Made by a program: the position numbers and the translations under genes | Part shown: positions 1,731-12,592 of the stretch, piece by piece | Layout: every line of letters starts with the position of its first letter | Position numbering within the stretch: position 1 is the stretch's first letter | The notes under the pieces: generated by a model | The model's database searches: none | Told to the model about the DNA's origin: nothing | What the model saw: only the letters and a program-made list of their open reading frames with translations | DNA from: Pseudoxanthomonas sp. J35 | Lineage (GTDB): Bacteria > Pseudomonadota > Gammaproteobacteria > Xanthomonadales > Xanthomonadaceae | Reading direction: 5' to 3' | Assembly (NCBI RefSeq): GCF_000513995.1 | Contig: NZ_KI911337.1 | Span: 51,523 to 115,522, forward strand | Length of the DNA: 64,000 bases

Positions 1731-3413
<1,683 letters not shown>

Positions 3414-3422
3414 TTCCGCGCC

Positions 3423-3440
3423 GGCCCGGATGCCCGGGCC
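3423..3440. other. Hairpin in aceB-aceA spacer
   Basis: GGCCCGG/CCGGGCC arms separated by ATGC form a 7-bp GC-only stem directly after the aceB stop. There is no T-run, so it may be an mRNA-stabilising or processing element that lets aceA be expressed differently from aceB. The role is inferred. Confidence 0.4.
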
Positions 3441-3489
3441 GCGCATCCCGCCATAGCCGCAGCAACACGACGTCCCACGGAGAAGCACC

Positions 3490-4782
<1,293 letters not shown>

Positions 4783-4800
4783 CCCGGTCCAAGGGGGCGG

Positions 4801-4862
4801 CCGGTCCTTGGGGGAGGACCGGTCGCCCCTGCGGTTGCGCCGGGAGAGGGGGGCGCAACCGC
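4801..4862 (+). terminator. Two tandem hairpins after aceA
   Basis: CCGGTCCT (4801-4808) pairs with AGGACCGG (4815-4822), and GCGGTTGCGCC (4831-4841) pairs with GGCGCAACCGC (4852-4862), an 11-bp perfect stem. Neither is followed by a T-run, so they are strong structures ending the aceBA message rather than a textbook intrinsic terminator. The rest of the 4783-5140 gap holds no gene that I can support. Confidence 0.5.
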
Positions 4863-5140
4863 ATCTGTGCACGGCTGCGGCCCTGCCGCGGCCGCTTTTC
4901 TGCCGGTTTCCGTCTTATGCAGGGTGAGGCCGGCACTGCCGGCGCCTTGGCAGGGCACCCATGCAGCGTTTCCAGAATCCCCGCACGCGCGTGCCGGAGA
5001 GGCGCCGCGGCGCGCCGCAGGCCGCGATCCTGGCCCATCCCCGGGCCGGGTGGGCCGCCGCCGCGGCCGCCCTGACCCCCGCCCGCCGCGATGCTATGCT
5101 CGCCGCTCACCTGGGGGGGGCCGGGTCAGGGAGCCGCGAG

Positions 5141-6181
5141 ATGTCCAGCGAGGGCGTGGCGCGCAAAGTCCGCCAGACAGTGGAGCAGGAAGCGCCCGGT
5201 GGCGGCAACGCCACCCTGTCGGCGTGCGAGGCCGGACTGTTCGCGGCGGTCGGCCGCGAACGGGCCATGCGTGCCGGGGAGCGCCTGTTCCGCCGCGGCG
5301 ACCCCGGCGAACTCATGTATGTCATCGCCAGCGGCCGGGTCGAACTGGACTTCGGCAACGACCTGGCGACCAAGCAGCTGGGTCCGCAGGAATTCTTCGG
5401 CGAACTGGGCCTGCTGATCGGCGAGCACACCCGCAGCGCCGACGCGGCCTGCATCCAGGACGGGCGCCTGTACGAACTGGGCCAGGGCGAGTTCCAGCAG
5501 CTGGTCGACCGCGATCCGGCGCTGGTCGCGCAGTTCCTGCGCCGTTCCATCACCCGCGTGGTGCTCAACGAGCAGGGCCTGATCCGCCAGCTGCGGCGCC
5601 GCAACCAGGACCTGGAAACGGCCCTGGACAACCTCTACGCCACTACCCACCAGCTCAACCAGACCGAGGAGCTGATCCGCACCGACGAGCTCACCGGCCT
5701 GTACAACCGCCGCGGCCTGACCCTGCACATGCAGGAATGCCGCCGGCTGGGCATGGACAAGCCGATGGGCCTGGTGCTGGTGGACTGCGACCGCTTCAAG
5801 CAGGTCAACGACGACCACGGCCACCTGGTCGGCGACCGCGTGCTGCAGAACGTGGCCGGCATCCTGCGCTCGGTCGCCGGCGCCGAGGACGTGCCGTGCC
5901 GGCTCGGCGGCGACGAGTTCTGCCTGCTGGTCTCGGCGCAGGGCCGCGACGAGGTCATGCGCTACGCCGAATTCATCGTTTCCACCACGCGCAGCCTGCT
6001 GAAACTGCAGCAGACGGTGCCGACGATCTGCCCGGTCAGCGTTGGCGCCTGCCTGGTCGAGCCGGAGCGCGACTGGAACGACTGGTACGCGCGCGCCGAT
6101 GCCGCCCTCTACGAGGCCAAGCGCCTGGGCGGCAACCGCGCTTTCTGGATGGACGAAACCCCACCGCCCGCGATGGCATGA
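5141..6181 (+). CDS. Cyclic-nucleotide-binding domain / GGDEF diguanylate cyclase
   Basis: A 346-aa cytoplasmic protein with no membrane segment. Residues about 25-145 are a CRP-like cNMP-binding beta-roll (GERLFRRGDPGELMYVIASG, LGPQEFFGELGLLIGEHTRSADA). Residues about 150-185 look helical (linker or coiled coil), and residues 190-340 are a GGDEF domain with intact GGDEF at 256-260. I see no RxxD inhibitory site at the usual place just before it. Predicted to make c-di-GMP from 2 GTP under control of a ligand bound by the N-terminal roll; whether that ligand is cAMP, cGMP or nothing is not visible. ATG 5141 is preferred over ATG 4961 because GGGAG lies just before it and the extra 60 residues are low-complexity. 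Only 12 bp separate it from the cyclase-like gene, suggesting one transcript. Confidence 0.88.
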   Translation: MSSEGVARKVRQTVEQEAPGGGNATLSACEAGLFAAVGRERAMRAGERLFRRGDPGELMYVIASGRVELDFGNDLATKQLGPQEFFGELGLLIGEHTRSADAACIQDGRLYELGQGEFQQLVDRDPALVAQFLRRSITRVVLNEQGLIRQLRRRNQDLETALDNLYATTHQLNQTEELIRTDELTGLYNRRGLTLHMQECRRLGMDKPMGLVLVDCDRFKQVNDDHGHLVGDRVLQNVAGILRSVAGAEDVPCRLGGDEFCLLVSAQGRDEVMRYAEFIVSTTRSLLKLQQTVPTICPVSVGACLVEPERDWNDWYARADAALYEAKRLGGNRAFWMDETPPPAMA

Positions 6182-6193
6182 GGGCGGACGCCG

Positions 6194-8809
6194 ATGGATG
6201 GCCAGCCGCACCATCACGACACCGATTCCCCGCAGCTGCGGACCCTGCTGCTGACCGACCTGTGCGAATCCACGCAGCTGGTCGAGCGGCTGGGTGATTC
6301 GGCGGCCGCGGCGCTGTTCCGCGACCACGACCAGCTGGTGCTGGAACTGCAGCACCGCTGGCGCGGCCGCCTGATCGACCGCTCCGACGGCATGCTGCTG
6401 CTGTTCGAGCGCCCGCTGGACGGGCTCGGCTTCGCCCTGGACTACCGCCGCGGCCTGGACGCGCTGGGCCAGGCGCACCGCGTCGGCCCGCTGCTGGCGC
6501 GTTCCGGCCTGCACGTCGGCGAGCTGCTGGTGTGGCGCAACAGCGAGGAAGCGGTCAGCGCCGGGGCCAAGCCGGTGGAAGTGGAAGGCCTGGCCAAGCC
6601 GTTCGCCGCGCGGCTGATGCAGCTGGCGCGGCCGGGGCAGATCCTGCTGTCGTCGGTGGCCGAACCGCTGGTGCGCCGCGCCGCGCGCGAACTGGGCGAA
6701 CGCGGCGCCACGCTGCAGTGGCGCACGCACGGGCGCTGGCATTTCAAGGGCGTGCCCGGCGTGCAGGAAGTGCACGAGGTTGGCGAGCCGGGGCTGGCGC
6801 CGCTGCGCATGCCGCGCGGCGACTCCAAGGCGCGCCGCGACCTGCCGGCATGGCGACGGCCGATGGCGCTGGTCGCCGAGGTGGTGCTGGTGGCCGGCGT
6901 GGCGGTCGCCATCTGGGCGGTGACCCGCCCGCAGCCGGCGATCGCCTTCGCCGAACGCGACTGGGTGGTGGTCGGCGACCTGCGCAACCTCACCGGCCAG
7001 ACCGTGCTGGACGATTCGCTGCAGCAGGCGTTCCGGATCAGCCTGGAGCAGTCGCGCTACGTCAACGTGCTCAGCGACCTGAAGGTCCGCGATACCCTGG
7101 CGCGGATGCAGCGCGACCCGGCGGCGACCAGGGTGGATCGCGCCATCGGCTCGGAAGTCGCCCAGCGCGACGGCGCGCGTCTGCTGATCCTGCCGACGGT
7201 GGCGGAAGTGGGCGGGCGCGTGCGCTTCAGCGCCGAGATCGTCGATCCGCGCACCCAGCGCACCCTGGCGGCCGAATCGGCCGACGGCCGCGGCCTGGAA
7301 TCGGCGCTGCGCTCGATCGACCAGGTCACCGCCTCGCTGCGCAACGCGATGGGCGAGAGCCTGGCCTCGATCCAGCGCGATTCGGCGCCGCTGCCGGACG
7401 TGAGCACGTCCAACATCGACGCGCTGCGCGCCTACGCGCTTGGCCAGCAGGCCTTCGGCAACTCGGAGTACGAGAAGGCCGCCGGCTTCTACGCCCGCGC
7501 GGTCGAATTGGATCCGGATTTCGCCCTGGCCTACGTCGGCCTGCTGCGCGCGGCCAATGCCCAGGTGAAACGCGACGAAGCCCTCGCAAGCCTGCGCGAG
7601 GCGATGGCGCACAAGAACCGCCTGCCGCCGCGCGAGCAGCTGTACCTGGATGCCTGGAACGCGCAGCTGACCGCGCCGGCGGACGCGCTCGACAAGTGGC
7701 GGCAGATGAGCGAGCTGTACCCGGACTTCTTCCCGGCCTACGCCAACGTCGGCTACGGCCTGCTGTCGGCGCGGCGCTACGCCGACGCGATGGACTACGC
7801 GATGCGCGCCACCGACCCGCAGAGCGAATTCGCGGCGCTGTCGATGGCGCTGGTCGGGCAGCTGCACCTGGGCCTGGAGAACCCGGGCAAGGCCGCCGAG
7901 GCCTTCGCCGCCGCGCAGGAAGGCGGGGTCAGGAACGCGCCGGTCGGCCGCGCGATCGCGCTGGCGGCGCGGCGCGAGTTCGACCGCGCGCACGAGGCGT
8001 GGAACCGGCAGCCGACCCAGGACGTGGCCTATTTCGACCACGCCAGCATCCTGCTCGACCAGGGCGACTGGGACGGCGCGATCGAGGAGATGCGCCGGCA
8101 GCTGGCGGCCACCGAGCCCGGCAGCGTACGCAACCAGATCGGCCAGCTGATGCTGGCCAGCGTGCAGGTGCTGGGCGGCCGCCCGCATGCCCGCGACGCG
8201 CTACGCCAGGCCGTGGAACCGCTGCTGGCGCGCACCGGGGACGAGGCCGCCCCGCTACCTGACGTGCTGGACTCCGCCTACGCGGTGCTGGTCGGCGCGC
8301 TGCTGGCGCAGCGCATCGGCGACACCCGCCTGTCCGGCGAAGTGCTGCGCCGGCTCAAGGGCCAGCCCCATACCAGCGGCGACCTGCCGCCGGCGAAGCT
8401 GTACCTCGCCGTGCAGGCCGGGCAACGGCTGGCCGAAGGCGACGCCGCGCAGGCGATCGCGCTGCTGGAACCGGCGCTGGACGGCGCCGAACCGGTGCAG
8501 GCGCACCGCATCCTGCTGGAGGCGTACCGCGCCCGCGGCGACACCGCGCGCAGCCTGCGCGAATCGCGCTGGCTCGCCGCGCACCGCGGCCGCAGCTACG
8601 TGGAACCCGGCTGCGGGCGCTGCCAGCAGGCCTTGAACGTATTCGATACCGTCGTCAGCCACCTCGAAAGCGCCGAGCTGCTCGCGTCCTCCGCCAGGGC
8701 GAAGGACGCGGCCGCGGAACTGGAGCGGTTCGACAGTGCGTGGCCGGCCGAGCGCCTGCCCGATTACTTGAGGCGGCGCAGGGAAGCGGTGCTGGCCGCA
8801 TTCAACTGA
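6194..8809 (+). CDS. Cyclase-like / TPR membrane protein of a peptide-modification cassette
   Basis: An 871-aa protein matching, as I recall it, the 'putative peptide modification system cyclase' family found beside NHLP-type precursors and SagB-like dehydrogenases in Xanthomonadaceae. Residues 15-160 are a class III nucleotidyl-cyclase fold: metal Asp22 in TDLCEST and Asp65 in DRSDGMLLLF are kept. The purine-selecting Lys region reads LIDRS, and the transition-state Asn of the usual VNxAAR motif aligns with Pro in AKPFAAR, while the Arg is kept. Activity may therefore be altered or lost. A single membrane segment (about 223-243) leads to a TolB/FlgO-like domain (about 255-370) and then TPR-like repeats to the end, probably periplasmic. 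Stop at 8809 overlaps the 3' end of the opposite-strand precursor gene by 46 bp. Confidence 0.78.
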   Translation: MDGQPHHHDTDSPQLRTLLLTDLCESTQLVERLGDSAAAALFRDHDQLVLELQHRWRGRLIDRSDGMLLLFERPLDGLGFALDYRRGLDALGQAHRVGPLLARSGLHVGELLVWRNSEEAVSAGAKPVEVEGLAKPFAARLMQLARPGQILLSSVAEPLVRRAARELGERGATLQWRTHGRWHFKGVPGVQEVHEVGEPGLAPLRMPRGDSKARRDLPAWRRPMALVAEVVLVAGVAVAIWAVTRPQPAIAFAERDWVVVGDLRNLTGQTVLDDSLQQAFRISLEQSRYVNVLSDLKVRDTLARMQRDPAATRVDRAIGSEVAQRDGARLLILPTVAEVGGRVRFSAEIVDPRTQRTLAAESADGRGLESALRSIDQVTASLRNAMGESLASIQRDSAPLPDVSTSNIDALRAYALGQQAFGNSEYEKAAGFYARAVELDPDFALAYVGLLRAANAQVKRDEALASLREAMAHKNRLPPREQLYLDAWNAQLTAPADALDKWRQMSELYPDFFPAYANVGYGLLSARRYADAMDYAMRATDPQSEFAALSMALVGQLHLGLENPGKAAEAFAAAQEGGVRNAPVGRAIALAARREFDRAHEAWNRQPTQDVAYFDHASILLDQGDWDGAIEEMRRQLAATEPGSVRNQIGQLMLASVQVLGGRPHARDALRQAVEPLLARTGDEAAPLPDVLDSAYAVLVGALLAQRIGDTRLSGEVLRRLKGQPHTSGDLPPAKLYLAVQAGQRLAEGDAAQAIALLEPALDGAEPVQAHRILLEAYRARGDTARSLRESRWLAAHRGRSYVEPGCGRCQQALNVFDTVVSHLESAELLASSARAKDAAAELERFDSAWPAERLPDYLRRRREAVLAAFN

Positions 8810-9102
8810 TTCGGGGTCATGCCCACGCCCGAACCGAGCATCGCCTCCAGCGACGAGCGCGCGCTGGCGATGGCCGCCTTCGGCGCGATCCGCTCCACGC
8901 GCAGGCACACGGCCAGCTGCTCCAGCGCGGCTTCACCGGCGGCGTCGCCCTTGGCGACCTTGTAGCCGGACGCCACCAGCGCGGCCTTCGGATCCTTCTT
9001 GAACAGGCGCCGGAACTCGTTGTCCGTGCCCAGCTTGTCCAGGAACTTGCGCGCCACCTTCGGATCCAGCGGCACGCGGCTGCCAGCCTTCTTCGTTGCC
9101 AT
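8764..9102 (-). CDS. NHLP-type putative modified-peptide precursor
   Basis: A 112-aa small protein. The N-terminal half is a leader resembling nitrile-hydratase-type/Nif11-type RiPP leaders (DNEFRRLFKKDPKAALVASGY at about 27-47). The C-terminal region from about 80 is rich in Ala, Ser, Thr and Asn with Gly-Ser-Gly-Val-Gly near the middle and ends LRRLK; the single Cys sits earlier, in QLAVCLRV. Presumed substrate of the neighbouring dehydrogenase; the actual modification and cleavage site cannot be read from one sequence. The ATG at 9102 follows GGGGAAACC. Lies tail-to-tail (46-bp overlap) with the cyclase-like gene and divergent from the dehydrogenase gene. Missed by automatic calls if the 490-residue frame containing it is taken as the gene. 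Confidence 0.75.
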   Translation of the reverse strand: MATKKAGSRVPLDPKVARKFLDKLGTDNEFRRLFKKDPKAALVASGYKVAKGDAAGEAALEQLAVCLRVERIAPKAAIASARSSLEAMLGSGVGMTPNQLNAASTASLRRLK

Positions 9103-9159
9103 GATGGTTTCCCCAGGAACGTCCCGGAATGGGCCGCTCCCGCAATCTAGCGGCCGCGC

Positions 9160-9181
9160 CGGCCGCCCACAAGGGCGGCCG
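9160..9181. promoter_or_regulatory. GC hairpin between precursor and dehydrogenase genes
   Basis: CGGCCGCCC (9160-9168) and GGGCGGCCG (9173-9181) form a perfect 9-bp stem with loop ACAA in the 174-bp divergent gap. It may insulate the two promoters or sit in the dehydrogenase leader. Function unknown. Confidence 0.4.
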
Positions 9182-9276
9182 CGTTGCGGCGGCGGAGCCG
9201 ATCGCGCAGGCTGTCGGCGGGGTGTCCGCGGCGCGAACGTGATGCCGGACGGGTAACGGAGAACGGGGAGGCGCGG

Positions 9277-10440
9277 ATGCGCGTGCGGCGGTGCCGGGTG
9301 CTCTACATCGAGCCCCGCGAGGACGTGGAGTTCGACCTGGCGGATGTGCTGCGCGGTGGCGACGGCCTGGCCAGCCGCATGCGCTGGCTGGCGCTGGCGC
9401 CGCACCTCGCACGGGAAGTGGAACTCGACGCGCGCGAACGCGAACTGCTCGGCCGGTTGAGCGCGGAGCGCTGGGTGGACCGCGCCACGCTCGACGGGGA
9501 CGCGCGCAAGGCGCTGCCACGGCTGCTGCGCGAAGGGCTGGTACTGGGCAGCGGCAAGCGGCATGCGGCGATGCGCCAACGCGAGGAAGCGCTGCGCGAG
9601 GTGCACTGGGATCCGCTGGCGGCCACCATGCACGCCTTCACCCGCTGGGAGGACGCCGACGCGGTGCGGTCGATGGAGGACACCGGCACGGTGACCATCG
9701 AGGAGGTACGCGAACTGTTCGGCGCGCCGCCGCCGGCAGTGCCGGTGCCGGAAGACGATGCGTTGCTGCAGCTGCCGCGCGCGGCGCGCGGCGACTTCGA
9801 CGCGCTGCTCTCGCGCCGCGTCACCTGCCGCAACTTCGACACCGCCCGCCCGCTGCCACGGACGCTGTTCGCGCAGGTCCTCGAGCGCGTGTTCGCCGCG
9901 CACGGGAAGATGGAAGTCACCGCCGACACGGTGTTCCTGAAGAAGAACTGCCCCTCCGGCGGCGGCCTGCATCCGGTGGAGGCCTATCTGCTGGTGCAGA
10001 ACGTCGAGGGCGTGGTGCCGGGCCTGTACCACTACCATCCGGTGCGGCATGCATTGCGCCCGTTGCCGTCGCCGGGCCGGCCGCTGGCCGACCTGGCGCT
10101 GGAGGCGGTGGCGCGCCAGCACTGGTTCGCCAACGCGCACGCGATGGCGATCCTCGCCCCGCGCTACGACCGCCACTTCTGGAAGTACCGCCGCCATCCC
10201 AAGGGGCTGCGCGTGGTCACGCTGGAGGCGGGGCATCTTTCGCAGCTGCTGTACCTGGCGGCGACCGACGCGGGCCTGGCGGCGTACATCACCGCGGCGA
10301 TCAACGAACAGCCACTGGAACGCGCGCTGGGCCTGGATCCGCTGCGCGAAGGCGTGCTGGCGGTGTGCGGCTTCGGCTGGCGCGCCGCGACGATGGAGAC
10401 GATGGAGCTGGATCCGGGCGCGGCGGTCTGGCAGCCGTGA
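9277..10440 (+). CDS. SagB-type flavin dehydrogenase, putative peptide maturation enzyme
   Basis: A 387-aa cytoplasmic protein. Residues about 35-85 resemble a small winged-helix (LDARERELLGRL..., RATLDGDARKALPRLLREGLVLG). Residues about 165-380 are a nitroreductase/SagB-like FMN domain with SRRVTCRNFDTARPL, the hallmark CPSGGGLHPVEAYLLVQ, and GLYHYHPVRHALRPL. SagB enzymes oxidise azolines to azoles on thiazole/oxazole-modified peptides; here no SagC/D cyclodehydratase is next door, so the reaction may differ. It fits the 'putative peptide maturation dehydrogenase' group that accompanies the cyclase-like protein and NHLP precursor. ATG 9277 follows GGGGAG; the upstream in-frame start at 9184 adds only Arg-rich low-complexity sequence and was rejected. 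Confidence 0.8.
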   Translation: MRVRRCRVLYIEPREDVEFDLADVLRGGDGLASRMRWLALAPHLAREVELDARERELLGRLSAERWVDRATLDGDARKALPRLLREGLVLGSGKRHAAMRQREEALREVHWDPLAATMHAFTRWEDADAVRSMEDTGTVTIEEVRELFGAPPPAVPVPEDDALLQLPRAARGDFDALLSRRVTCRNFDTARPLPRTLFAQVLERVFAAHGKMEVTADTVFLKKNCPSGGGLHPVEAYLLVQNVEGVVPGLYHYHPVRHALRPLPSPGRPLADLALEAVARQHWFANAHAMAILAPRYDRHFWKYRRHPKGLRVVTLEAGHLSQLLYLAATDAGLAAYITAAINEQPLERALGLDPLREGVLAVCGFGWRAATMETMELDPGAAVWQP

Positions 10441-10459
10441 CGGGCACGCGCCGCGCGGG

Positions 10460-10490
10460 AAAAAGAAACGGGCGCCGTTACCGGCGCCCG
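10460..10490 (-). terminator. Intrinsic terminator of the S9 peptidase gene
   Basis: CGGGCGCC (10469-10476) and GGCGCCCG (10483-10490) form an 8-bp stem. On the minus strand it is followed by TTTCTTTTT (10468 down to 10460), the classic form. It lies between the convergent dehydrogenase and peptidase genes and may stop both. Confidence 0.8.
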
Positions 10491-10513
10491 CCCCCCAACC
10501 AACCGCGGTTGCC

Positions 10514-12592
10514 TTACTTCTGTACGTTCGGCGTGTGGCCCTGCAGCGCCTCGGCCAGCCCGTCCACGCCCTCGGCGCCCACCGGGGCGGTGGCGCTGGA
10601 CCCGGCCAGGTCCTCGCCGATCGGCTGCGCGCGGCCGCCCAGGCACCTGGCCAGGAAGTTCTCCGCGATCGCGTTGAAGGCCTTGTTGTTTTCCGGACGG
10701 GCGAAGCCGTGGCCCTCGTCGGGGAACAGCACGTAGGTGACCGGGATGTTCTTCGCCTGCATCGCCGCGACGATCTGGTCGCTCTCGGCCTGCTTCACCC
10801 GAGGGTCGTTGGCGCCCTGGCCGATCAGCAGCGGCTTCCTGATCTGGTCGGCGCGGGTCAGCGGCGAGCGTTCCTCCAGCCACTTGCGGCCTTCCTCGGT
10901 GCGCGGGTCGCCCATGCGCCGCGCCAGCTGCTCGAAGAAGCTGGCCCAGTACGGCGGCACCGTCGACAGCAGGGTGGCGAGGTTGGACGGCCCGACGATG
11001 TCCACGCCGCAGGCGAAGGTGTCCGGGGTGAAGGTCAGGCCGACCAGCGTGGCGTAGCCGCCGTAGCTGCCGCCCATGATCGCGACCTTGTCCGGGGTGG
11101 TGATGCGCTGCTCCACCGCCCAGTTCACCGCGTCGACCAGGTCGTCGTGCATCTTGCCGGCCCACTCGCCGTCGCCGGCGTTGGTGAACTCCTTGCCGAA
11201 GCCGGTGGAGCCGCGGTAGTTGACCGAAAGCACCGCGTAGCCGCGGTTGGCCAGCCACTGGTTCCAGCTGCTGTAGCCGTAGCCGTCGCGCGCCCACGGT
11301 CCACCATGCACCAGCAGCACCAGCGGCACCGGCGTGTCGGCCTTGCCGTCGCCGTCGGGATCCGCCTGCGCCGGCAGGGTCAGGTAGCTGGGCAGGGTCA
11401 GGCCGTCGCGCGACTTCAGCTCCAGTGGCCACTGCGGCACCAGCGGCTTGCCGTCCAGCGCCGGGCGCGCGGAGAACAGCCTGGTCAGCCTGCCTTCGGC
11501 GCCGGGCGTGCGGTCGTAGCGGTAGTACACCACCGGCGATTCGGCGGCCGAGTAGGTGACGATCCAGGTGCGGTCGTCGAGCGTGCGCGCGTTGACGCCG
11601 ACCTCGCCCGGGCCGATGCCTTCGAGCACCTTGAGGTCGGCCGCCAGCGCGTCGCCGACAGGCTTCCACTCGTTGCGCAGGTAGTCCACCGACACCGCCT
11701 GCAGCTCGCCGGTGCGCGGATCGGCCAGGCCGCCGCCGATGTCGGCGCGCGCGTCCTCGGCCAGCAGCCTGCGTTCGCCGCTGGCGCTATCGATCGCGTA
11801 CACCGCGGCGGTATTGCGGTTCCGCGAATCGGCCAGGTACAGCGTCTTTCCATCGTGGGTCAGGCCCAGCACGCTGGTGGTCAGCACGTCCTCGAACGGT
11901 ACGTCGTCGGCCTGCTCCCAGCCGTCGCCGGCGCGGCGCAGGATGTCGAGGCCGCCGTCGGGGCGCGAGCGCTGGGCGAAACGCAGGTTGTACTCGCCGT
12001 CGGCGATGTAGCCGGCGATCTGCCGGGTGTTCTTCTCCACCAGGGTGCGGTCGCCGCTGGCCAGGTCGACCCGGTACAGGTCGTGCCACTTGGCGTCGCG
12101 GTCGTTCATGCCGACCAGGATGCTGTCCGGCTGCGTCGGGCTGACGCCGACGACCTGCGCGGTGGTCTTCGCGAACGGAGTGAGGTCGCGCGCCTGGCCG
12201 GTGGCGAGGTCCACCGCGTAGAGGTGGAAGTCCTCGTCGCCGCCGGTGTCGCGCAGGTACAGCAGCGTGTCCGGGCGGTACGACCAGAAGTAGTTGCGGA
12301 TCCCGCGGGCCTTGTCGTCGGTGACCGCGCGCGCGGCGGAGGGATCGTTCGCCGGCGCGACCCAGACGTTCATCACGCCGTCGACCGGCGCGACCCAGCT
12401 GAGGTACTTGCCGTCCGGGCTGATCTGCACCGCCGCGCGCTCGGGATTGCCGAACAGCGCATCGCGCGGGATCAGCTCGACTTCCTTCGGTGTTTCGGGC
12501 GTGGCGGCGGCGGTGCCTTCCTCCTGTTTGCCGGTACAGGCGGCCAGGGCGAGGGCGAGGCTGGAGACGGCGAACAGGGCGGTGCGGCGCAT
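10514..12592 (-). CDS. S9-family (prolyl oligopeptidase/DPP-like) lipoprotein peptidase
   Basis: A 692-aa exported serine peptidase. The N-terminus MRRTALFAVSSLALALAAC is a lipoprotein signal peptide with lipobox LAAC, so it is probably membrane-anchored in the periplasm or outer membrane. Residues about 35-400 are WD/beta-propeller-like repeats typical of S9; the C-terminal alpha/beta hydrolase carries HGGPW (oxyanion region), nucleophile Ser509 in GGSYGGY, Asp in GANDPRV and His in EGHGFARP. Expected to cut short peptides, often after Pro. ATG 12592 follows GGGGAG; an in-frame start at 12634 was rejected. It lies convergent to the peptide-modification cassette, and a link to it is only positional. 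Confidence 0.9.
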   Translation of the reverse strand: MRRTALFAVSSLALALAACTGKQEEGTAAATPETPKEVELIPRDALFGNPERAAVQISPDGKYLSWVAPVDGVMNVWVAPANDPSAARAVTDDKARGIRNYFWSYRPDTLLYLRDTGGDEDFHLYAVDLATGQARDLTPFAKTTAQVVGVSPTQPDSILVGMNDRDAKWHDLYRVDLASGDRTLVEKNTRQIAGYIADGEYNLRFAQRSRPDGGLDILRRAGDGWEQADDVPFEDVLTTSVLGLTHDGKTLYLADSRNRNTAAVYAIDSASGERRLLAEDARADIGGGLADPRTGELQAVSVDYLRNEWKPVGDALAADLKVLEGIGPGEVGVNARTLDDRTWIVTYSAAESPVVYYRYDRTPGAEGRLTRLFSARPALDGKPLVPQWPLELKSRDGLTLPSYLTLPAQADPDGDGKADTPVPLVLLVHGGPWARDGYGYSSWNQWLANRGYAVLSVNYRGSTGFGKEFTNAGDGEWAGKMHDDLVDAVNWAVEQRITTPDKVAIMGGSYGGYATLVGLTFTPDTFACGVDIVGPSNLATLLSTVPPYWASFFEQLARRMGDPRTEEGRKWLEERSPLTRADQIRKPLLIGQGANDPRVKQAESDQIVAAMQAKNIPVTYVLFPDEGHGFARPENNKAFNAIAENFLARCLGGRAQPIGEDLAGSSATAPVGAEGVDGLAEALQGHTPNVQK

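What the first reader, a model, noticed from the sequence alone, without database searches (positions are those of the whole stretch)
5141..10440. Uncharacterised RiPP-like cassette: cyclase-like TPR protein, NHLP precursor, SagB-type dehydrogenase
Seen: a 112-aa peptide with an NHLP/Nif11-like leader lies tail-to-tail with a class III cyclase-like/TPR membrane protein and head-to-head with a SagB-like FMN enzyme, with no YcaO cyclodehydratase, LanM or radical SAM enzyme beside them. Established, from memory: this trio (modified peptide, modification-system cyclase, maturation dehydrogenase) has been defined as a protein-family constellation in Xanthomonadaceae. I know of no reported product. 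Inference: a peptide modified by an oxidation without classical azole formation.
Basis: partly seen in the sequence, partly recalled or inferred. Interest (0 to 1): 0.88.

Follow-up and report, generated by a model that had tools for sequence, protein, structure and literature searches.

The report
Peptide-gated guanylate cyclase signalling locus
A bacterial gene cluster encodes a small peptide, an enzyme of the oxidising SagB family and a membrane protein whose predicted outer half differs between strains in step with the peptide and the enzyme while its inner half stays nearly constant, so it is likely a peptide signalling system that would switch on the cGMP and cyclic-di-GMP messengers shown to control biofilms in a related Xanthomonas.

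Summary
The trio is real: a TIGR04510 cyclase-TPR protein, a TIGR04509 NHLP-type peptide and a TIGR04511 SagB-like enzyme. NCBIfam already names it. Two results change its reading.

A fourth gene belongs to it. The cNMP-binding GGDEF gene just upstream (5141-6181) is in 81 of 82 genomes with TIGR04511 and keeps the cGMP-contact residues of Xanthomonas XC_0249. The 'cyclase' is of the type of XC_0250, the guanylate cyclase that works with XC_0249 (PMC3770947): a messenger enzyme, not a peptide cyclase.

The cyclase's predicted periplasmic half, the peptide and SagB vary together as one exchangeable block. Between Xanthomonas types A and B the TPR part, peptide and SagB are 30%, 32% and 45% identical, while the cytosolic half (95%), GGDEF protein (91%) and aceBA (93-94%) barely differ. 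The break lies at the membrane helix; switches occur in seven genera. Peptide quorum-sensing specificity groups look like this.

Best reading: a SagB-matured peptide is the ligand of a membrane guanylate cyclase that drives cGMP, then c-di-GMP. Binding, modification and export are untested; no linked exporter was recognised.

The parts
5141..6181 (+). cNMP-binding + GGDEF protein (XC_0249-type cGMP effector, diguanylate cyclase)
   Evidence: Pfam PF00027 and PF00990; F71, E88, L89, H96, V140, N143, E144 and GGDEF all present in the window; best solved match 5h5o
6194..6784 (+). cyclase protein, residues 1-197: class III nucleotide cyclase domain, predicted cytosolic
   Evidence: matches Rv1900c and Ma1120; D22 and D65 kept in 78 of 79 rows, the other a gap
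6854..6922 (+). cyclase protein, residues 221-243: single membrane helix
   Evidence: hydropathy peak 2.5, next outside it 1.37; helix in the model; divergence begins here between Xanthomonas types
6959..7363 (+). cyclase protein, residues 256-390: alpha/beta domain, predicted periplasmic
   Evidence: model with moderate confidence
7406..8803 (+). cyclase protein, residues 405-870: TPR solenoid, predicted periplasmic; most type-specific part, proposed peptide-binding domain
   Evidence: model pLDDT mostly over 90; 38% identity to congener G001 against 83% in the cytosolic half
8764..9102 (-). 112-aa NHLP-related precursor peptide
   Evidence: TIGR04509, 63.3 bits
8767..8832 (-). peptide residues 91-112: proposed mature tail
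   Evidence: tail is the most type-specific part of the peptide in Xanthomonas; proposed from alignment, cleavage not shown
9103..9276 (.). divergent intergenic region between peptide and SagB genes
   Evidence: sequence
9277..10440 (+). SagB-like FMN dehydrogenase, proposed peptide maturation enzyme (Trp-Lys-Tyr at 10180-10188)
   Evidence: TIGR04511, 563 bits; WKY in 88 of 88 rows; model matches ThcOx, BmdC, McbC
7201..10600 (.). type-specific block as seen against congener G001 (edges to the nearest 200 bases)
   Evidence: DNA identity 34-69% inside; 79-94% before 7000 except 52-71% at 4800-5200, 74% at 7001-7200; 81-91% after 10600
1731..4782 (+). aceB and aceA, conserved flank used as background
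   Evidence: for aceA; aceB named by position and by recurrence next to aceA; not part of the system

Best explanation
This locus is likely a peptide signalling system in which a small peptide, predicted to be matured by the SagB-like enzyme, would bind the predicted periplasmic TPR domain of a membrane nucleotide cyclase and so raise cGMP, which would switch on the neighbouring diguanylate cyclase to make cyclic-di-GMP. Shown here: the four gene families go together across genomes; the GGDEF protein keeps the cGMP-contact residues of XC_0249; the cyclase is of the XC_0250 type by residue pattern and gene order; the cyclase's outer half, the peptide and the SagB enzyme differ together as a block between close relatives while the inner half and the flanks stay nearly constant. 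Shown by others in Xanthomonas campestris (PMC3770947): XC_0250 makes cGMP, cGMP binds and stimulates XC_0249, and both affect biofilm. Inferred: the peptide is oxidised by SagB, cut and exported, is the ligand, and strains fall into groups that respond to their own peptide.
For: Genome co-occurrence: 79 of 299 genomes have all four, 88 have any. GGDEF protein: residues equivalent to F73, E90, L91, H98, E146 of XC_0249 in 71 of 71 rows. XC_0249 and XC_0250 residue numbers fit Xanthomonas loci at offset 0. Block polymorphism in 23 Xanthomonas loci, with DNA edges at the membrane helix and 159-222 bases after the SagB stop in three pairs. The types need at least 7 changes on an aceBA tree. In 76 loci, partial correlation given the cytosolic half: TPR-peptide 0.84, TPR-SagB 0.79, aceA-peptide 0.02. 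In 26 disjoint close pairs, Spearman TPR-peptide 0.94 and TPR-cytosolic half 0.12. A matched set is shared by G175 and G195 of different genera. The window shows the same switch against G001.
Against: No product, binding or secretion has been seen. No exporter was recognised among the gene families that recur near the cassette, and 28 of 82 cassette genomes have no C39-type exporter match. The three block genes are adjacent, so exchange carries all of them even if selection acts on one. The types are somewhat clustered on the aceBA tree (7 changes against a shuffled mean of 10). The GGDEF-peptide partial correlation is low (0.22) but also beyond 2000 permutations, and TPR-aceA reaches Spearman 0.40, p 0.04, in the disjoint pairs. 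G091 has the cassette without the GGDEF gene; G276 has cyclase and GGDEF gene without peptide or SagB. The XC_0250 sequence itself was not fetched. N145 is kept in 47 of 71 and V142 in 49 of 71. In the window the residue equivalent to L73 of XC_0250 is Met.
Confidence: 0.6

Rival explanations
1. The peptide is an antimicrobial RiPP and the membrane cyclase is the producer's sensor of, or protection against, it. Outer domain, enzyme and peptide diversify as a bacteriocin-immunity set, and cGMP is a stress answer rather than a group signal.
For: Bacteriocin and immunity genes also diversify in pairs (recalled). The lack of a recognised linked exporter and regulator leaves the role of the product open.
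Against: The output half is conserved and belongs to a pathway that controls biofilm and transcription (PMC3770947). G276 keeps cyclase and GGDEF gene without peptide or SagB, as a receiver could. No killing or immunity family was named among the proteins scanned.
Confidence: 0.13
2. The peptide is a carrier on which SagB makes a small molecule, and the TPR domain senses that small molecule, not a peptide.
For: SagB keeps its catalytic pair with no YcaO in most cassette genomes, so its chemistry is not the classical one.
Against: The tail is the most type-specific part of the peptide and is well kept within types (12-25% between types, 68-95% within), as expected of a ligand rather than of a carrier.
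Confidence: 0.13
3. The block is swapped for reasons unrelated to signalling (for example escape from phages or toxins that use the outer domain), and the peptide and SagB merely hitch-hike because they lie next to it.
For: The three genes are adjacent, so any exchange carries all of them.
Against: Peptide and SagB stay with the cyclase throughout: of 82 genomes with TIGR04510 over cut-off only G276 lacks both. In G175 and G195, of different genera, the set stays matched (TPR 47%, SagB 52%, peptide 56%; next best over all 76 loci 25.5, 36.2 and 34.3 for G175) although SagB lies inverted there.
Confidence: 0.08
4. One reading: the cyclase-like protein takes part in modifying the peptide.
For: The NCBIfam name and the tight linkage.
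Against: It is a nucleotide cyclase by sequence and model, its relatives make cGMP (PMC3770947), and the variable part is predicted to lie outside the cytosol.
Confidence: 0.03

Closest known systems
XC_0250 / XC_0249 cGMP to c-di-GMP relay of Xanthomonas campestris (An et al. 2013, PMC3770947)
   Same: Adjacent class III cyclase with TPR domain and cNMP-binding GGDEF protein; cGMP-contact residues; GGDEF motif
   Different: The paper does not mention the peptide or the SagB-like gene: the words peptide, operon and nitroreductase do not occur in its main text. The input signal was unknown.
NCBIfam trio TIGR04509 / TIGR04510 / TIGR04511
   Same: All three members present over cut-off and in the usual order
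   Different: The trio leaves out the GGDEF effector and names the cyclase as part of peptide modification
comQXPA and agr quorum-sensing loci with pherotypes (comQXPA: PMC4408185, passages; agr recalled)
   Same: Peptide, modifying enzyme and sensor part of the receptor diverge together; types are exchanged; output conserved
   Different: Receptor is a nucleotide cyclase, not a histidine kinase; Gram-negative hosts; enzyme is SagB-like; export and ligand binding not shown
Azole-forming RiPP clusters (SagBCD, McbBCD, cyanobactin ThcOx)
   Same: SagB/McbC/ThcOx fold and Lys-Tyr pair
   Different: No YcaO in this genome; 7 of 82 cassette genomes have one
Animal receptor guanylate cyclases gated by peptides (recalled)
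   Same: Works like (proposed): outer peptide-binding part, one membrane helix, inner cyclase
   Different: Not claimed as a member: TPR outer domain and cyclase at the N-terminus here; peptide gating unproven

Membership tests
NCBIfam trio TIGR04509/04510/04511 | each protein over its curated cut-off | tested here: met
   63.3/34, 1087/400, 563/240 bits
NCBIfam trio TIGR04509/04510/04511 | the three families occur together in genomes | tested here: met
   80 of the 84 genomes with any have all three
XC_0250/XC_0249 cGMP relay | cyclase and cNMP-binding GGDEF genes adjacent | tested here: met
   window 5141-6181 and 6194-8809; GGDEF gene near the cassette in 71 of 81 loci
XC_0250/XC_0249 cGMP relay | cGMP-contact residues F73, E90, L91, H98, V142, N145, E146 | tested here: met
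   all seven in the window at offset -2; in relatives N145 47 of 71, V142 49 of 71, the other five 71 of 71
XC_0250/XC_0249 cGMP relay | residues of XC_0250 needed for activity (D41, D71, L73, A150, L157, A161) | tested here: inconclusive
   two Xanthomonas loci match at offset 0; the window has D35, D65, A145, L152, A156 but Met 67 for L73, read by me from the sequences
XC_0250/XC_0249 cGMP relay | makes cGMP; cGMP stimulates the GGDEF protein | not testable with these tools
   needs enzyme assays
Azole-forming RiPP (SagBCD type) | SagB fold with catalytic Lys-Tyr | tested here: met
   WKY in 88 of 88 rows; model matches ThcOx, BmdC, McbC
Azole-forming RiPP (SagBCD type) | YcaO cyclodehydratase in the cluster or genome | tested here: not met
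   none in this genome; 7 of 82 cassette genomes
Azole-forming RiPP (SagBCD type) | core rich in Cys/Ser/Thr | tested here: inconclusive
   71 of 97 peptides have no Cys in the last 22 residues, but all 97 have at least one Cys, Ser or Thr there
Peptide quorum-sensing pherotype locus | peptide, maturation enzyme and receptor sensor part co-diversify while the output part is conserved | tested here: met
Peptide quorum-sensing pherotype locus | types exchanged between relatives, not following descent | tested here: met
   7 changes on the aceBA tree; one clade rejected for A (p 3e-7) and B (p 2e-4); shared set in G175 and G195
Peptide quorum-sensing pherotype locus | exporter or protease for the signal | tested here: inconclusive
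   no linked exporter recognised; C39 family in 54 of 82 cassette genomes
Peptide quorum-sensing pherotype locus | group-specific activation by an outside peptide | not testable with these tools
   needs bench work
RRNPP peptide receptors (TPR proteins; features recalled) | cytosolic TPR receptor that binds re-imported peptide | tested here: not met
   one membrane helix separates the TPR part from the cyclase domain, so it is predicted to be periplasmic

The most novel reading that the evidence does not exclude
Bacteria have a peptide-gated receptor guanylate cyclase: a SagB-oxidised peptide pheromone without classical azoles binds the periplasmic TPR domain of the XC_0250-type cyclase, and cGMP passes the message on to c-di-GMP. 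The locus is split into pherotypes that are swapped as a block between species and genera of Lysobacteraceae, so that biofilm control in Xanthomonas and its relatives is kin-specific.
Probability: 0.45. Interest if true: 0.95.

Novelty: new variant of a known kind. Interest (0 to 1): 0.86.

Why it matters
Two things filed apart turn out to be one locus: a RiPP-like cassette known from NCBIfam family names, for which I found no product in print, and a proven bacterial cGMP to c-di-GMP pathway whose input signal is unknown. The block polymorphism suggests what that signal is and which part of the receptor reads it. That makes the open question 'what does XC_0250 sense' directly testable with a peptide, a purified TPR domain and two alleles. 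If confirmed, it would be a peptide-gated membrane guanylate cyclase in bacteria and a pherotype system of modified peptides in Gram-negative bacteria.

Tried and rejected
Azole formation by an unlinked YcaO: not supported for this genome and for 75 of 82 cassette genomes, which have no match. A dedicated C39 exporter: not supported, 54 of 82. One conserved product: the window's 120 listed peptide homologues (of 496 found) share a conserved tail, which at first suggested this, but wider sampling shows many tail types. Fast evolution of the outer domain instead of exchange: not supported, because pairs with cytosolic halves 97-100% identical show either 82-99% or 22-33% in the TPR part. Linkage of the GGDEF gene as mere synteny with aceBA: partly true within the family (aceA beside it in 57 of the 58 same-family loci that have the GGDEF gene nearby); outside it, 6 of 13 linked loci have no aceA nearby, and seven cassette genomes keep the gene unlinked. 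An RRE-like leader-binding domain at the SagB N-terminus was considered; the structure list tested mainly residues 164-383, so nothing is claimed. Fisher values are not corrected for relatedness and are not used as proof.

Rows dropped: L135 (broken copy), so 23 of the 24 Xanthomonas loci; L116 has no SagB row there. In one search I dropped loci lacking any of five proteins, loci with identical cyclase C-termini, and ten loci that I named because they hold several cassettes or are broken or fragmentary, leaving 76, of which 23 are Xanthomonas. Of the 81 genomes other than the window's with TIGR04511 over cut-off, 80 were fetched; G136 came. The genes were called by a simple GC-frame rule, not by a gene finder, and its clusters were not all named. 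The peptide counts include two broken loci (L135, L154) and one contig piece (L156). The alignments for the structure models used 32 and 37 relatives chosen by me from the longer hit lists.
Full report
WHAT IS THERE. Along the + strand: aceB 1731-3413, aceA 3490-4782, a cNMP-binding GGDEF protein 5141-6181, a cyclase-TPR protein 6194-8809, then a 112-aa peptide on the - strand 8764-9102, a SagB-like enzyme on the + strand 9277-10440, and an S9 peptidase on the - strand.

IT IS A UNIT OF FOUR. In the same 299 genomes of the order, TIGR04511, TIGR04510 and TIGR04509 are over cut-off in 82 genomes each. All four are in 79 genomes; 81 of the 82 with TIGR04511 have the GGDEF gene. Around 81 loci (80 fetched and the window) the GGDEF gene lies nearby in 71. 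Of the other ten, two have it beside the cyclase on another contig, seven elsewhere in the genome, and one (G091) has none. Five genomes have the GGDEF gene without TIGR04511: G111, G106, G231 and G254 have no cyclase over cut-off either, and G276 keeps the cyclase but neither peptide nor SagB. Within the window's family part of this linkage is shared synteny with aceBA; outside it, 6 of 13 linked loci have no aceA nearby. These counts are not corrected for descent.

THE CYCLASE IS A MESSENGER ENZYME. Its first 200 residues match class III adenylyl cyclases Rv1900c and Ma1120, and D22 and D65 are kept in 78 of 79 rows, the other being a gap. One hydrophobic helix lies at 221-243. The model (mean pLDDT 87.5, pTM 0.59) shows an alpha/beta domain at 256-390 and a TPR solenoid at 405-870. 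With the nucleotide cyclase inside, the TPR part is predicted to be periplasmic. An et al. 2013 (PMC3770947; text parts 1-3 of 4 read, and a word search) showed that Xanthomonas campestris XC_0250, a class III cyclase with a TPR domain, makes cGMP and not cAMP. They showed that the linked cNMP-binding GGDEF protein XC_0249 binds cGMP (KD 0.29 uM), that cGMP raises its diguanylate cyclase activity, and that both affect biofilm and virulence. Xanthomonas loci fetched here carry the published residues at exactly the published numbers: L037 and L076 for the cyclase, L081 and L107 for the effector. The window's effector has all seven contacts at offset -2; five are invariant in 71 of 71 rows, N145 is in 47 and V142 in 49. 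The window's cyclase has Met where XC_0250 has L73. The sequence of XC_0250 itself was not fetched. One search gave 33 named loci (24 Xanthomonas, 6 Stenotrophomonas, 2 Pseudoxanthomonas, 1 unnamed Lysobacteraceae); 29 of them show the complete order GGDEF, cyclase, peptide (-), SagB, and the other four (L116, L127, L135, L144) are incomplete or broken.

THE CENTRAL RESULT: BLOCK POLYMORPHISM. Among 23 Xanthomonas loci the cassette falls into four types (A 12, B 6, C 4, D 1). I set the types by eye from the peptides. Mean identity between A and B: aceA 92.8, aceB 93.7, GGDEF protein 91.1, cyclase residues 1-205 94.7, residues 251-430 53.2, residues 431 to end 29.9, SagB 44.9, peptide 32.0. Within A the same eight values are 93.9, 94.1, 92.3, 95.2, 89.5, 81.6, 84.9 and 79.6. 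In three pairs of different type (L114/L132, L143/L136, L131/L124) DNA identity is mostly 86-100% on both sides, with a dip to 70-79% near 4600 in two pairs and unaligned ends, and 33-67% inside. At 30-base resolution all three pairs drop at cyclase codon 231, by the start of the membrane helix, and recover 159-222 bases after the SagB stop. On an aceBA tree the types need at least 7 changes where 3 would do (shuffled mean 10, so they are not random either); one clade is rejected for A (p 3e-7) and for B (p 2e-4). Strains named X. arboricola carry A (L112, L119, L143), B (L131) and C (L136).

NOT ONLY XANTHOMONAS. In 76 loci of the order, with the cytosolic half held constant, identity of the TPR part correlates with the peptide at 0.84 and with SagB at 0.79, and SagB with the peptide at 0.72; the GGDEF protein correlates with the peptide at 0.22 and aceA with the peptide at 0.02. 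No permutation of 2000 reached the first four values; 735 reached the aceA value. Without Xanthomonas (53 loci) the first three become 0.75, 0.69 and 0.61, against 0.30 for GGDEF-peptide and 0.02 for aceA-peptide. In 26 close pairs that share no locus, Spearman is 0.94 (TPR-peptide), 0.94 (TPR-SagB), 0.12 (TPR-cytosolic half, p 0.55), 0.23 (TPR-GGDEF, p 0.25) and 0.40 (TPR-aceA, p 0.04). Switches (TPR part under 45% with GGDEF protein and cytosolic half over 75%) occur in seven genus codes: g1, g2, g3, g5, g6, g8 and g18; g3 by one pair within the genus. The window is one case: against its congener G001, aceA 94, GGDEF 77, cytosolic half 83, TPR 38, SagB 57, peptide 43; against G264 all are 94-99. 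One block is shared across genera. G175 (Xanthomonas) has a cytosolic half and GGDEF protein 100% and 99% like another Xanthomonas, but its TPR part, SagB and peptide are nearest to G195 of another genus (47, 52 and 56%), with nothing else in the 76 loci over 26, 36 and 34%. G195 in turn has a cytosolic half 97% like its congener G190. Both carry SagB in the opposite orientation.

DUPLICATES AND REMNANTS. Three genomes (G291, G281, G110) hold two cassettes in tandem behind one GGDEF gene; the paired cyclases are 67-70% identical in the cytosolic half and 29-34% in the TPR part. G096 and G203 carry, downstream of SagB, an outer domain without a cyclase that is about 50% identical to those of G151 and G023. 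Duplication with divergence of specificity is discussed for other cell-cell signalling families (PMC5199041, search listing and start of abstract only).

THE PEPTIDE AND ITS ENZYME. In Xanthomonas the leader helix is 43-62% identical between types and the tail 12-25%; within types A, B and C the tail is 88, 95 and 68%. Of 97 distinct peptides, 71 have no Cys in the last 22 residues and 18 none in the last 95, but all 97 have at least one Cys, Ser or Thr in the last 22. SagB keeps Trp-Lys-Tyr and Arg-x-Thr-x-Arg in 88 of 88 rows (the roles of these residues are recalled), and the model (mean pLDDT 90.4) matches ThcOx, BmdC and McbC. No YcaO was found in this genome and only 7 of 82 cassette genomes have one. 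So the enzyme looks active, but classical azole formation lacks its first enzyme. Dehydrogenation of another bond is a guess.

READING. In comQXPA pherotypes are tied to striking polymorphism of the comQXP genes (PMC4408185, passages); that the sensor part of the receptor varies while the output stays put, there and in agr, is recalled. The same pattern here points to the peptide, matured by SagB, as ligand of the TPR domain, with cGMP and then c-di-GMP as output. What speaks against certainty: the genes are adjacent and could hitch-hike; homologous exchange can only end where sequences are alike, so the edge at the membrane helix tells where divergence starts, not by itself why; no exporter was recognised; no product has been seen.

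KNOWN OR NOT. The trio is in NCBIfam; the relay is published. I found no paper that joins them. Searches: 'peptide modification system cyclase' 0 papers; 'peptide maturation dehydrogenase' 1, on graspetides, passages seen; the TIGR accessions and short names 0; SagB + nitrile hydratase leader + Lysobacter 0; XC_0250 3 papers and XC_0249 6, listings seen, one of them read in parts 1-3 of 4 and one in passages; cGMP + Xanthomonas + diguanylate cyclase + guanylate cyclase 24, 15 listed; Xanthomonas + pherotype 5, none on this by title; a mixed search 3. The library holds open papers only.

Noticed in passing
L037, L076: cyclase residues 28 and 41; window cyclase residues 22 and 35: The residue called the first metal-binding Asp in XC_0250 (D41) aligns with window D35, but the class III match to Rv1900c and Ma1120 places the Asp of the TD motif at window D22 (Xanthomonas D28); both are conserved. 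That the TD motif is the metal site is recalled.
   Followed up: partly
L135 (Xanthomonas phaseoli), L154 (G290), L152 (G254): The cassette is broken in L135 and in L154, and L152 keeps only the GGDEF gene; loss of the system recurs.
   Followed up: no
L094 (G235) and G091 (TIGR04509 matches): G235 has five TIGR04511 matches and nine TIGR04509 matches around one full cyclase; G091 has five TIGR04509 matches in a row and no GGDEF gene match.
   Followed up: no
window 8764-8809: Peptide and cyclase genes overlap tail-to-tail by 46 bases; an overlap is present in 49 of 101 loci counted, so antisense effects are possible.
   Followed up: partly
L062 9935-11860, L063 10166-12091: Outer domain without a cyclase domain downstream of SagB, perhaps a displaced older receptor or a decoy.
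   Followed up: partly
window 18000-64000: Nine further proteins scanned look like housekeeping or transport (coaBC, AmpG-type transporter, TonB receptor, tyrS, putA, ctaD, dnaG among them); none relates to the cassette. The rest was not scanned.
   Followed up: partly
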